64,000 nucleotides of DNA, from NCBI RefSeq assembly GCF_000145215.1, contig NC_014392.1:1620001-1684000 (forward strand), read 5' to 3'. Origin of the DNA: Caldicellulosiruptor obsidiansis OB47. Lineage in GTDB: Bacteria > Bacillota > Thermoanaerobacteria > Caldicellulosiruptorales > Caldicellulosiruptoraceae. Positions 2,070 through 58,623 of the stretch are shown here, one piece after another. Position 1 is the first letter of the stretch; the number at the start of each line of letters is the position of its first letter. A program made the position numbers and the translations under genes. The notes beneath the pieces were generated by a model. It did not search any database. It saw nothing but the letters and a program-made list of their open reading frames with translations, and was not told the origin of the DNA.

Positions 2070-2424
2070 ATGTGCGACCAGGTCTGTAAGCCGAGTTCTG
2101 TCGAGAACGGCTATTTCTCTTTGGGTCTGACGTTACCATCAGACCTCTTGCGACCAACCCGGGAACGCAGCGGGCCACTGCATTGTTCCCCTATTTGGTC
2201 TTGCTCCGGGTGGGGTTTGCACAGCCAGTCAGTCGCCTGACTGCTGGTGAGCTCTTACCTCACCTTTTCACCCTTACCATCCTTGCAAAAATGGATGGCG
2301 GTTCTTTTCTGTTGCACTTTCCTTGGAGTCGCCTCCACTGGGTGTTACCCAGCACCCTGCCCTGTGGAGCTCGGACTTTCCTCACAAGGGTTATCCCCTT
2401 GCGCAGCCGTTCGACCTGCTCGCA
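2070..2424 (-). ncRNA. rnpB: RNase P RNA, bacterial class A
   Basis: Catalytic RNA of RNase P, which matures tRNA 5' ends. The minus strand shows the conserved core GAGGAAAGTCCGAGCTC (about 2364-2380), the AACAGAAA segment, and the distal conserved GGTAAGGGTGAAA and GAGCAAGACC blocks. The ends pair as P1: GCAGGTC plus TGCGA near 2413-2424 with the complement at 2073-2084. The length of about 355 nt and the class A helices fit Clostridia. A near-perfect promoter precedes it and a terminator hairpin follows. Apparent reading frames across this stretch are artefacts of a structured RNA. Ends are estimated from P1 and the promoter, within a few bases. Confidence 0.95.
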
Positions 2425-54320: not shown

Positions 54321-54505
54321 CTCTTAGTAACTCCTCCTCTCTCAATATACCTTTGATTTTCTCAAAATATCTTTCGTTTTCTTCAAATTTCGTAGTTATA
54401 AAAATTTATTTAGTGCTTGTTATTTCTATTATTGCTTTATTCTACCACATGAAGATTAGATTCAACCTGCTTTTTGTATTAATTTAGATATTATACCATA
54501 TTGCG
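54321..54505. other. AT-rich gap upstream of the broken protease
   Basis: On the minus strand a short frame (KFEENERYFEKIKGILREEELLRALY, about 54317-54394) ends at a stop and looks like a gene remnant. It includes the 18-bp segment at 54336-54353 that recurs at 62433-62450. Nothing else recognisable. Confidence 0.4.
54336..54353. repeat. 18-bp exact repeat, copy 1
   Basis: CCTCTCTCAATATACCTT occurs here and at 62433-62450, in both cases at the upstream edge of a truncated minus-strand gene. Confidence 0.8.
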
Positions 54506-54670
54506 GCGGGTATCCGTCCACAATAACCATGGTGTTTACCCTCTCATGTCTCTCAGGGTCTTTCTTACCTTGCCCTCAATTCCCTCGTCCCATCTACCAT
54601 GGCGTGGATGTCGGTTATGCTCGTATGCAGGGTCTTCGCCCTTATGGTGATTGTACTCCGACTAACCCGC
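54506..54670 (-). ncRNA. Candidate guide (seek/bridge) RNA of IS110 element 1
   Basis: A GC-richer island of about 165 bases in very AT-rich surroundings, downstream of the IS110-family transposase. Complementary ends GCGGGT (54506-54511) and ACCCGC (54665-54670) close it; inner pairs include ACCCT / AGGGT (54538-54542, 54554-54558) and GTCGG / CCGAC (54610-54614, 54658-54662). Some IS110-family elements (IS1111 group) encode their guide RNA at this 3' position. No promoter could be assigned; strand is inferred from the transposase. Confidence 0.4.
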
Positions 54671-54912
54671 TCTCATTTTCCAATCGTCCTATAAAAATTC
54701 ATTTAATTTAATCTAATTCTTCTTCCCTTCTATTCTTAACCTTAACATACTTTCTATGATTTGAATCCCTAATAAAAGGGGCGCTTTGCTACTCGACATG
54801 TCTTAACTCTTCTCGCAAAGCTAAGAAACTTTTACCCCCTCAAGATGTGTATTCTGCTAATCTTTCGCTCCTACTTTAAACTAAAATTTCTTAACTTATT
54901 TTTTTATTTCTT
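54671..54912. other. AT-rich gap before the IS110 transposase stop
   Basis: No open frame or clear fold beyond a weak AAAGGGGCGCTTTGC stretch near 54776. It is probably the 3' non-coding part of the element. Confidence 0.3.
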
Positions 54913-56199
54913 TTACGCTGTTGTTGCTAAAGCCTCTCTCTTTATATCGCTCAACATCTTGTTCCCATCATATTTTATCCCTTTTTTTAAAATCGCGTAA
55001 AATATCCTTATCAACTTACAGCAAAGCGCTATCAGTGATTGCTTCTTCTTCAATGGATTGTTCTGCCGCATAGTGTAATACATATGCAACTTCTTAAATT
55101 CTTCATTCTTTGCTACTATTGTAATCATAGCCTTAAATAAACTACTTCGAAGCCTCCCACGCCCTCTTTTGCTTATACACGTCTGTCCCTTATGCTTGCC
55201 AGAACTATTCTCAACTATATTCAGTCCCGCTAATTTCTGTATCTGCTTAGCATCTTCATATCTCATTATATCCCCAACCTCAGATATAAAACCAACTGCT
55301 GTCTTTACTCCAACACCTTTTATCTCAAGCAGCTTTTCTCCATTCGGAACATCTTTCAAAAGTTTTGCCATTTCATCTTCTATTCCTTCCAGCTGCTTTC
55401 TTAAAAGCTCATATTCTTCAAGCAAATATCTCATCTCTTGCCTTGCCAGCTTCCTACCTTCTTTCTTACCTATACTCCTTTTAGCAGCTTCCACTAATTC
55501 CATAGCCCTTTTGCGACTTATCGCTCGCTTGTCTACTTTGTCACGCCAACATTCTATAATCCCTTCCACTCCCTTTTCTACTACATCACAAGGCAATGGC
55601 ATCTCTTTTAAAGTCAGTAGCGCTACCTTGCCTTCCCAATCAGAAAATACTTCTAAAAACTCTGGAAAATAGATATCCAGCCAGTTGATTATTTGATTTT
55701 TTAAAACACTCAAGCGCTTTTGTAGCCTTTCATATATGTTCATCGCTACTCTCATCTCAGCATATATACCCGCGGGTATATTTGGCTCTGTATATCTTCC
55801 ATCCTTCACAAGCATCGCTATTGTTTTCGGATCCTTTATATCGCTCTTTGTTGGTGTATTATCATCAAGCTCCTTGCTCCTCTTCACGTGAAAAGGATTC
55901 ACTAAAACCACTTTTATGCCATTCTCTCTTAAGTACTGCTCAAAGCACAGCCAGTAATGCCCTGTAGGCTCTATCCCTACTATCACGTTCTCTTTGCCAT
56001 GGGCTTTCATTATCTTATTTGCCCAATCCAAAAATTTTCCCATACCTTCTTTTCTATTCTCAAACTCTATTCTCTTGCCAAGCTCCACTCCTCTAAAATC
56101 AAATGCTCTGCCAACATGTATCTCCTTTGCTATGTCTACTCCTACAACTAAAGTTTTCTCTGTCACTTGTAATATCTTCTCATTTTGTGTATACTTCAA
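54913..56199 (-). CDS. IS110-family transposase (element 1), apparently intact
   Basis: DEDD-type recombinase of 428 residues, start TTG 56199 set by AAAGGAGGT 7-8 bases upstream. N-terminal RuvC-like domain: VVGVDIAKEIHVG (first Asp), NVIVGIEPTGHYW (Glu), TKSDIKDPKTIAML (two Asp). C-terminal transposase_20 domain: LLEIKGVGVKTAVGFISEVGDI, and LNIVENSSGKHKGQTCISKRGRGRLRSSLFKA with the candidate catalytic serine. All four acidic residues are present. This family inserts by an RNA that pairs with both target and donor. Its 5' end faces that of element 2. Confidence 0.93.
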   Translation of the reverse strand: MKYTQNEKILQVTEKTLVVGVDIAKEIHVGRAFDFRGVELGKRIEFENRKEGMGKFLDWANKIMKAHGKENVIVGIEPTGHYWLCFEQYLRENGIKVVLVNPFHVKRSKELDDNTPTKSDIKDPKTIAMLVKDGRYTEPNIPAGIYAEMRVAMNIYERLQKRLSVLKNQIINWLDIYFPEFLEVFSDWEGKVALLTLKEMPLPCDVVEKGVEGIIECWRDKVDKRAISRKRAMELVEAAKRSIGKKEGRKLARQEMRYLLEEYELLRKQLEGIEDEMAKLLKDVPNGEKLLEIKGVGVKTAVGFISEVGDIMRYEDAKQIQKLAGLNIVENSSGKHKGQTCISKRGRGRLRSSLFKAMITIVAKNEEFKKLHMYYTMRQNNPLKKKQSLIALCCKLIRIFYAILKKGIKYDGNKMLSDIKREALATTA

Positions 56200-56203
56200 A
56201 GAG

Positions 56204-56271
56204 GGTACCTCCTTTGTTGTGTTTTGTCGTAAGTTGTACAACTTACATTCTATATTTTATCAGGAGGTACC
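56204..56271 (-). promoter_or_regulatory. RBS-sequestering inverted repeat and 18-bp palindrome upstream of transposase 1
   Basis: GGTACCTCCT (56204-56213) contains the complement of the transposase ribosome site and has an exact 10-bp inverted copy at 56262-56271. Between them lies a perfect 18-bp palindrome GTAAGTTGTACAACTTAC (56229-56246). An mRNA entering from outside would fold and hide the ribosome site; one starting inside the arm would not. The palindrome could be an operator or end-binding site. Confidence 0.6.
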
Positions 56272-56390
56272 TTTTCTTTTCAAATCTCATTTCTCGTCAT
56301 TTTCGCTCATTTTCGTTCATTACAGGAATGCTTGTATAATTATTTTCGTAAGGCACATCAAAAAAATTCTAATAAAATAACAACCAAAGG
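56272..56390. other. Gap between the two IS110 elements
   Basis: An AT-rich stretch with short repeats of CATTTTCGTTCATT type (56296-56321: TCATTTCTCGTCATTTTCGCTCATTTTCGTTCATT in tandem-like 10-12-base units) and a TATAAT at 56336-56341. It is probably the 5' end of element 1. Confidence 0.4.
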
Positions 56391-56541
56391 TTTGGTTAAC
56401 ATAAGATTTTGAGTCTCATCAATTAAAGTAACATTTCAAATACTTCCTCTTTGAGAGGAAAGCAGCCTAAAATCACTTCCTGCTGCTTGTGCCTTCTAAT
56501 CTTTAGCCACTTTTAAAAGCATTATTTTTAACGCTGGCCTC

Positions 56542-56569
56542 TTGCCAGCCATGCTAACTTTGATATAAT
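56542..56569 (+). promoter_or_regulatory. Promoter of the candidate bridge RNA
   Basis: TTGCCA (56542-56547), 16 bp, TATAAT (56564-56569): a strong sigma-A promoter whose start (about 56576) is about 245 bases before the transposase ATG. Confidence 0.75.
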
Positions 56570-56575
56570 TCTTTC

Positions 56576-56772
56576 TATCTGGGCATGGAATTTATCTGCA
56601 CTCGCCTCCTGGGAGCGGAAGCTTCCTTCCGTATACCCGCACAAAAGACTATTATTCCATTCCAGGTAAGTCTAAACTATTTGTGGCTAAAGGCCAGCTT
56701 AAATCTTAGTTTAAGCTGGTTCCTCTATCTACTGCCCAAGGTTGTATACTTACCTTCGCTCGGAATGGAAAA
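56576..56772 (+). ncRNA. Candidate bridge RNA of IS110 element 2
   Basis: A strongly folded 5' non-coding region: a GGAAGCTTCC hairpin at 56617-56626, then a long stem TTCCATTCC-AGGTAAG (56655-56670) with CTTACCT (56749-56755) and GGAATGGAA (56762-56770), enclosing a large internal loop and a 10-bp hairpin CCAGCTTAAA / TTTAAGCTGG (56694-56703, 56710-56719). A long stem broken by a big internal loop and upstream of the transposase is the layout of bridge RNAs in the IS110 group. The loops would hold the target- and donor-pairing guides. Confidence 0.65.
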
Positions 56773-56821
56773 CTCATGCCCTAATTCAATTTTAAAATCA
56801 CTTGCGAGGAGGTCTTATGCT

Positions 56822-58118
56822 ATGAATTTAAAACCTATTGCCGGGATTGATGTCTCCAAATATTTCAGTGAAATGGTGGTTATCTCTCCTGGAAATGAAA
56901 TACTCGCTCGCTTGACTATCCGTCACAACAATCCCTCTGACTTTGATAGGGCTATTGAAATCCTTAAAAAAGTTGAAGAGGATTTCGCGGCTCGCCCTAC
57001 CATCGTCATCTCAAGCCACAGGGCATTACCACAAAATCCTCTCCCGCTTCTTTACTTCTAATGGCTGGGATGTTGCAATTATCAATCCCATCCAATTCTC
57101 ACCTCTATCAAAAATGCGGGAGGAAGTCAAAGTGAAAAATGATAAAATCGATGCCCTGTGGATTGCCTTAACCTTCAGGCTTACTAACTCTGCTATAGCA
57201 CAACCTTCATCTGAAACCCTCGATTGCTTGAAAAACTTATGCCGTCAGTATTACAACCTCAGCGATGAGTTAACCTCTTACAAATACAGACTTATATCAA
57301 CCGTTGACCAAATTATGCTCAATTTCAAAGAGGTCTTCCCTGACATTTGCTCTAAAACTGCTTTGACTGTACTTGAAAACTATCCTACTCCAAACGATAT
57401 CCTAAGCGCTGACAGTGAAAAACTTATTTCCATCATTCAACAAACTTCTAAAAAAAGCTACCAATGGGCTAAAGAAAAATATGATCTACTCATCGCAAAA
57501 GCTAAAGAATTTAAGCCTTTTTCTATATCTGACTTGGCAAATGTTACTATGCTTAAAGTCTACATTAACATGGTCTTGACTTTGCAACAAAACATCGACA
57601 AAATTTTTGAAGCCATACATCAGCTTGTTCAGCAGTCTTCACAGACTCAACCTTCAATATCCGAAAATATTAACCTTCTTCAATCTATCCCCGGCATAGG
57701 TTTTCTCACTGCTGCAACTATCCTTGCTGAAATAGGTGATTTCAAAAAATTTTCAAAACCCAACAAACTTGTTGCTTTCTTTGGCATTGATCCTTCCGTA
57801 AATCAATCTGGGCAATTTGTTTCTACATCCAACAAAATGTCTAAACGTGGCTCTAAAATCTTGCGAAGAATCTTATTTACAATTGCTCTTGCCAATATCA
57901 GAACCAAAAGAGACTCTAAGCCTTGTAACCCTGTACTCTTCGAATACTATCAGAAAAAGTGCCAACAAAAGCCCAAAAAAGTTCTATTTTGTGCTGTTAT
58001 GAGAAAGCTCATATGCATTATCTTTGCTGTTATGCGTGATAAAAAGCCTTTTGAACTTAGAACTCCTGAAGAACATATTCAAAAATGTTTTAACAAGACT
58101 GCTGTTTGTTGCGTATAA
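56822..58118 (+). pseudogene. IS110-family transposase (element 2), frameshifted
   Basis: The gene starts well (GAGGAGG 9 bases before ATG 56822) with IAGIDVSKYFSEMVV, but near 57014 the frame shifts. The second frame continues with ATGHYHKILSRFFTSNGWDVAIINP, KNDKIDALWIALTF, IPGIGFLTAATILAEIGDF and NQSGQFVSTSNKMSKRGSKILRRILF to 58118. At the shift the catalytic Glu codon of the expected E-A-T-G-H-Y motif is also lost (reads S or Q). Without the shift the protein would be about 430 residues. It differs strongly from transposase 1, so these are two separate elements. Confidence 0.88.
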
Positions 58119-58247
58119 ATAATTGTTTTATTAACAAAACATTGGTTAACCATAATATGCGCTCAGCCTCCATATATTATGTCAACTTCTAATAGAGGGC
58201 TTACCTTCTTATACCCTTTTAAAAGAATTTTTTACCATAAAATGTTA

Positions 58248-58623
58248 TCAAAAATTTTTTAAAAAACTCTTGACTTTAATTAGCTGGTCTTTAGGAAATA
58301 TTTCTGAAATTAACTTTAATGCAAATAGAACTTCACCTACTATATTTAGTTTTTCGGCATTTTTTAATATCTCCTTCCAAACAATCTTATTTCTATACTT
58401 ATTCTCAAAAAGTAAAATATCTATAAGTAGTAATAATCTTAAGTATGGCTCCTTCCCTTCTGTTAACATAGAATAATAATCCAAGATAAAATCCTTTGAA
58501 AAATGATATAAAATAAATATAAAAATTATTGTTAACATCTAACCGATAGAAAATTTTCCCTTTAATTTTATATTGTTCTGCTTTGTTTATCAAGTAACTA
58601 TATAAAACCTCACATACTTTCAT
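58248..58623 (-). pseudogene. Nucleotidyltransferase-family (NTP_transf_5-like) C-terminal remnant
   Basis: Two overlapping frames join across a shift near 58500: an N-terminal piece (MKVCEVLYSYLINKAEQYKI) and HFSKDFILDYYSMLTEGKEPYLRLLLLIDILLFENKYRNKIVWKEILKNAEKLNIVGEVLFALKLISEIF. The H..KD, YLRLLLLIDI, VWKEILKNAEKLNI pattern resembles the C-terminal half of PF14907-type nucleotidyltransferases often found in lasso-peptide clusters. The nucleotide-binding half is missing. Family assignment is by eye only. Confidence 0.5.

What the first reader, a model, noticed from the sequence alone, without database searches (positions are those of the whole stretch)
56542..56772. Bridge-RNA-like locus with its own strong promoter upstream of IS110 element 2
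TTGCCA-N16-TATAAT is followed by a GGAAGCTTCC hairpin and a 16-bp two-part stem enclosing a large internal loop and a 10-bp apical hairpin. This matches the known layout of IS110 bridge RNAs, in which the loop arms specify target and donor.
Basis: partly seen in the sequence, partly recalled or inferred. Interest (0 to 1): 0.65.

Follow-up and report, generated by a model that had tools for sequence, protein, structure and literature searches.

The report
IS110 bridge RNA in decayed transposon
The segment is the gene for a bridge RNA, the two-loop guide RNA that tells an IS110 transposon where to insert; it belongs to a recently described kind, and the copy in this genome is broken while intact relatives exist in related bacteria.

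Summary
A covariance model finds the RNA directly upstream of IS110 recombinase genes in about ten lineages; its 55 pairs are 92.8% formed, 30 with changes on both sides (0/500 shuffles). Target guides in the first loop track insertion sites: left guide 209/351 matches against 161 permuted, right guide 122/259 against 88, both p<1e-5. One right-donor-guide base covaries with the element's left end (11/11 lineages, p=0.006). The promoter TTGCCA-N16-TATAAT is real; a second, TTGACT-N17-TATAAT, would form only when the ends join in a circle.
The window's copy is dead: recombinase frameshifted, catalytic glutamate codon lost, left donor guide decayed, and its own insertion site matches its guide no better than chance. 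A new member of a known kind; the RNA's own promoter behind a ~230-bp leader is the only unusual feature.

The parts
56331..58290 (+). Whole IS110-group element ('element 2'), from CT core to CT core
   Evidence: About 18 full copies in the genus share these ends; uninterrupted empty sites for another copy in six genomes
56331..56340 (+). Left core CT and left end TGTATAAT (contains the -10 half of the circle-junction promoter, TATAAT 56335-56340)
58270..58290 (+). Right end TTGACTTTAATTAGCTGGT plus core CT (58289-58290); TTGACT 58270-58275 is the -35 half of the circle-junction promoter
56343..56541 (+). Leader between left end and bridge RNA promoter, with conserved hairpins, function unknown
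56542..56569 (+). Bridge RNA promoter TTGCCA-N16-TATAAT
   Evidence: -10-like box 8-17 nt upstream of the RNA in most relatives
56577..56783 (+). Bridge RNA; start inferred from the promoter, end from the outer stem
56581..56588 (+). Outer stem, 5' strand (pairs with 56774-56781)
   Evidence: 7 of 8 pairs with changes on both sides among relatives (helix 1)
56774..56781 (+). Outer stem, 3' strand
   Evidence: helix 1
56600..56610 (+). Left target guide ACTCGCCTC + core CT, in the target-binding loop
   Evidence: Match to insertion sites across copies, p<1e-5; weak for the window's own site (3/9)
56610..56638 (+). [quoted passage not shown]
   Evidence: All 7 inner pairs with compensatory change (helix 3)
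56639..56647 (+). Right target guide GCACAAAAG (reverse complement CTTTTGTGC)
   Evidence: Match to right flanks across copies, p<1e-5; L013, with the same guide, sits at CTTTTGTAC
56655..56671 (+). Two-part donor-loop stem, 5' strand (pairs with 56762-56770 and 56748-56755)
   Evidence: helices 4-5
56677..56692 (+). Left donor guide slot TATTTGTGGCTAAAGG; degenerate here, TTTGGCTGGTTGAG in relatives
   Evidence: Alignment A2; the relatives' form matches right end TTAGCTGGT
56691..56725 (+). Apical hairpin of the donor-binding loop
   Evidence: helix 7
56734..56741 (+). Right donor guide GCCCAAGG; CAAG pairs with left end CTTG
   Evidence: A/T covariation with the left end in 11 of 11 lineages, p=0.006
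56748..56770 (+). Donor-loop stem, 3' strand with a 6-nt bulge
56822..58118 (+). IS110 recombinase pseudogene: frameshift near 57012, catalytic Glu codon of the EATGH motif lost
   Evidence: intact 430-aa copies in other genomes

Best explanation
The locus encodes the bridge RNA of an IS110-group insertion sequence. In a working relative the RNA is transcribed from its own promoter in the left end, and also, after excision, from the promoter formed where the circle's ends join. It folds into an outer stem holding a target-binding loop followed by a donor-binding loop. Left and right target guides select a mostly pyrimidine-rich site around CT; left and right donor guides bind the element's own right end (...AGCTGGT-CT) and left end (CT-TGTA...). 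The DEDD recombinase then exchanges strands at the CT core. Shown here: the conserved covarying structure, its location, the exact element ends, the guide-to-target association and one donor-guide covariation. Inferred: transcription, binding to the recombinase, and catalysis. The window's copy is a decayed member: its recombinase is frameshifted and has lost a catalytic residue, and its left donor guide no longer matches its right end.
For: Recombinase: Pfam DEDD_Tnp_IS110 and Transposase_20; NCBIfam IS110 RNA-guided transposase, 245 bits in an intact relative; solved relatives IS621 and ISCro4. RNA: z = -5.29; model R1 hits directly upstream of the recombinase in about 10 lineages; 92.8% of cells paired, 30 of 55 pairs with double changes, 0/500 shuffles. 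Ends and cores; empty sites. Target guides: 209/351 against 161.2+/-7.0 and 122/259 against 88.1+/-5.8 in permutations, p<1e-5; at the level of distinct guides p<1e-5 and 2e-5. Donor guide covariation: 8 against 3 lineages, p=0.006. Junction promoter: TTGAC(T/A) and a -10 17 nt apart in the 8 lineages whose two ends could be joined with confidence (sequences).
Against: For the window's own copy the guide-to-target match is at chance level (3/9, 3/7), and the left donor guide does not match its right end. Left donor guide and right end are nearly invariant among relatives, so that pairing has no covariation support. No RNA-seq or activity data. Alignment A5 was fitted to the model, so its pair counts lean towards the structure. 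Some guide registers in distant relatives were set by eye.
Confidence: 0.93

Rival explanations
1. The structured segment is only the 5' untranslated region of the recombinase mRNA, a translational attenuator rather than a guide RNA.
For: It lies directly upstream of the recombinase start (56822) on the same strand, and no intrinsic terminator was found between the two, so it may also be part of the mRNA.
Against: Two unpaired segments vary together with the insertion site and one donor-loop base varies with the element's own end while the scaffold around them is conserved; an attenuator does not predict this.
Confidence: 0.04
2. The bridge RNA is made only from the circle-junction promoter, as in IS621; the TTGCCA-N16-TATAAT box is not used, and the mature RNA is cut out of a longer transcript that includes the leader.
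For: The junction promoter is a perfect TTGACT-N17-TATAAT with spacing kept across lineages; in IS621 the RNA starts from the junction promoter.
Against: A -10-like box lies 8-17 nt upstream of the RNA in most lineages, exact TATAAT in about half, which a leader without a promoter would not need.
Confidence: 0.3
3. The window's copy is still functional in trans: its RNA guides recombinase supplied by other copies.
For: The RNA's stems and promoter are intact in this copy, and target guides are present.
Against: Its left donor guide is altered; the other copies found in this genome, L032 and a partial one, are also broken or incomplete; its own site does not match its guide.
Confidence: 0.1

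Closest known systems
IS621 bridge RNA (IS110 group; PMC11208160)
   Same: RNA in the left end upstream of a DEDD recombinase; target loop first, donor loop second; CT core; guides on both sides of each loop including the core; circle-junction promoter
   Different: The IS621 RNA is ~177 nt and starts from the junction promoter, and its right plus left ends total 298 bp. Here the RNA is ~205 nt, begins ~245 bp inside a ~490-bp left end at its own promoter, the right end is ~170 bp, and an outer stem encloses both loops
seekRNA of IS110-type ISEc21 (PMC11187229)
   Same: Non-coding region upstream of the recombinase gene; short RNA with matches to both strands of the target; ends joined in a circle create a promoter
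   Different: Different sequence and target; in ISEc21 the functional RNA region lies within the first ~180 bp of the element
ISPpu9 small RNAs Asr9 and Ssr9 (PMC8450116)
   Same: An IS110-family element with small RNAs made from their own promoters in integrated copies
   Different: Reported as regulators of transposase expression, one antisense; different positions in the element

Membership tests
IS110-family insertion sequence | DEDD RuvC-like domain plus Transposase_20 domain | tested here: met
   broken in the window copy, intact in relatives
IS110-family insertion sequence | Insertion at a short core without other target duplication | tested here: met
   Empty sites hold one CT, occupied sites one CT at each end
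IS110 group (as against IS1111) | Bridge RNA in the left end, left end longer than right end | tested here: met
   RNA at 56577-56783 upstream of the gene; left end ~490 bp, right end ~170 bp
IS110 group (as against IS1111) | No long (7-17 bp) subterminal inverted repeats | not tested
   Not examined systematically
Bridge RNA | Conserved two-loop structure | tested here: met
   Covariation; second structure prediction
Bridge RNA | Target guides on both sides of the first loop match the insertion site | tested here: met
   Met at family level, p<1e-5; not met for the window's own site
Bridge RNA | Donor guides of the second loop match the element's own ends | tested here: inconclusive
   Right guide covaries with the left end; left guide matches in relatives without covariation and is lost in the window copy
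Bridge RNA | Binds the recombinase and directs recombination | not testable with these tools
   Needs biochemistry
Bridge RNA | Expressed from a promoter formed across the joined ends | tested here: inconclusive
   The sequence motif is present and conserved; expression not testable here

The most novel reading that the evidence does not exclude
A lineage of Firmicutes IS110 elements expresses its bridge RNA from a dedicated promoter in integrated copies, downstream of a structured ~100-230-nt leader, so guide supply is uncoupled from circle formation; the circle-junction promoter would then drive leader, guide and recombinase together.
Probability: 0.4. Interest if true: 0.4.

Novelty: new member of a known kind. 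Interest (0 to 1): 0.32.

Why it matters
It adds a bridge RNA family with naturally varying target guides and many mapped insertion sites, from genomes that probably belong to heat-loving bacteria (genus not confirmed by a tool). Intact relatives (five identical recombinases in each of two genomes) could be tested as RNA-guided recombinases. The internal promoter, if used, would mean that guide RNA is made without excision.

Tried and rejected
Rfam: no match at the locus. I first took AACTCCTC-CT, left of element 1, as the window's target and found a good guide match. The empty-site search showed that this is element 1's own site and that the native context of element 2's right flank is GATACATTC-CT-TTAGG, so the match was withdrawn and the statistics redone. 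An RNA model hit on the opposite strand of the window (31.7 bits) was treated as a reflection of the stems. Leader hairpins show almost no variation among genus copies, so no structural claim is made for them. L097 has no model hit, and the left end of L099 could not be placed with confidence.

Full report
Setting. The window lies at 1,620,001-1,684,000 of a 2,532,343-base single-contig genome, probably Caldicellulosiruptor (my inference from genome size; no tool named it). The finding sits in the left end of an IS110-type element. The recombinase gene starts at 56822 and is frameshifted near 57012; the reading frame after the break carries both IS110 Pfam domains.

Observation. The promoter is exact (TTGCCA 56542, TATAAT 56564; 11/12). 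The RNA folds far better than shuffles (-70.5 kcal/mol, z -5.29). The two-part stem and apical hairpin are as described.

Element ends. About 18 full copies in the genus start at CT-TGTATAATTATT and end at TTAGCTGGT-CT, with unrelated flanks beyond; two of them have an altered left end. The window element is thus 56331-58290. Empty sites for another copy (L042) are uninterrupted in six genomes, with one CT where the element has one at each end.

Family. A 430-aa intact recombinase in relatives matches the NCBIfam IS110 RNA-guided transposase model and the solved IS621 and ISCro4 proteins. Relatives at about 38-65% identity were found in other genera. A covariance model built from 11 genus copies hits directly upstream of nearly all of these genes, with E-values down to 1e-21 in distant loci. 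On 19 aligned RNAs 92.8% of cells pair (76.8% shuffled), 30 of 55 pairs change on both sides, and sliding partners by one column drops pairing to about 50%. The alignment was fitted to the model, but RNAalifold on the same alignment also finds 21 pairs with double changes.

Target guides. In the first loop, a segment ending in CT on the 5' side and one ending in AG on the 3' side differ between copy groups while the scaffold is conserved. Across 39 sites the 9-nt left guide matches its own left flank at 209 of 351 positions, against 161.2+/-7.0 when guides are permuted. Across 37 sites the 7-nt right guide matches at 122 of 259, against 88.1+/-5.8. Neither total was reached in 100,000 permutations. 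Collapsing to distinct guides keeps the signal (p<1e-5 and 2e-5); within the genus alone p=0.004 and 0.015. Examples: L098 GTGGCCCCC at GAGGCCCCC; L145 AGTGCTCCC at ACTGCTCCC; L075 right side CTATTAC at CTATTAT. Some guide registers in distant relatives were set by eye, a limitation.

Donor guides. Relatives carry TTTGGCTGGTT before the apical hairpin, matching right end TTAGCTGGT, but both are nearly invariant, so this pairing is consistent rather than proved. On the 3' side, CAAG occurs with left end CTTG in 8 lineages and CTAG with CTAG in 3, without exception (p=0.006).

The window copy. Its left donor guide reads GTGGCTAAAG instead of GGCTGGTTGAG, shared with L032 and L013, whose recombinases are also broken. 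Its catalytic Glu codon is lost at the frameshift. The native context of its right flank in four genomes is GATACATTC-CT-TTAGG, only 3/9 against the left guide. This copy is therefore structurally preserved but probably inactive, and by itself would not have proved guide function; the case rests on its relatives.

Expression. Joined ends would give TTGACT-N17-TATAAT; the spacing is the same in the 8 lineages that could be joined (for L076 and L064 the script's pattern picked a later box, the 17-nt one is read from the printed sequence). Close to the RNA, a -10-like box lies 8-17 nt upstream in most lineages, exact TATAAT in about half. IS621 uses the junction promoter. Own promoters for small RNAs of an IS110-family member are known from ISPpu9, so a dedicated promoter has precedent.

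Verdict. A bridge RNA gene of an IS110-group element, new in sequence but of a known kind; the promoter-plus-leader layout is a modest variation that needs RNA mapping.

Noticed in passing
window 54337-56332: Element 1 is a second IS110-family element (recombinase 54913-56241, minus strand), also flanked by CT, with a short left end and a ~574-bp right end as in IS1111 types. A crude fold of part of the right end was unremarkable.
   Followed up: partly
window 56316-56340; L034; L036: Element 1 abuts element 2 exactly at element 2's left CT core in three genomes, suggesting that element 1 targets the joint CT-TGTATAAT.
   Followed up: partly
window 54338 and 56331; L146: The native sites of the two outer flanks lie ~12 kb apart in genome G007, and the end portions of that stretch were not found in this genome. 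The simplest explanation is loss by recombination between two element 1 copies.
   Followed up: partly
window 56343-56541: The leader upstream of the bridge RNA promoter has three or four conserved hairpins in genus copies, with leader z-scores around -2 to -3 in several lineages. Function unknown.
   Followed up: partly
Function unknown.
   Followed up: no
L043, L044 (genome G005): Two intact copies have an altered left end and share one left flank but not the right flank.
   Followed up: no
L045; genome G008: The insertion site of one copy lies in a sequence repeated many times across the genus, more than 30 matches in G008.
   Followed up: no
window 2071-2422: RNase P RNA, class A, minus strand.
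   Followed up: no
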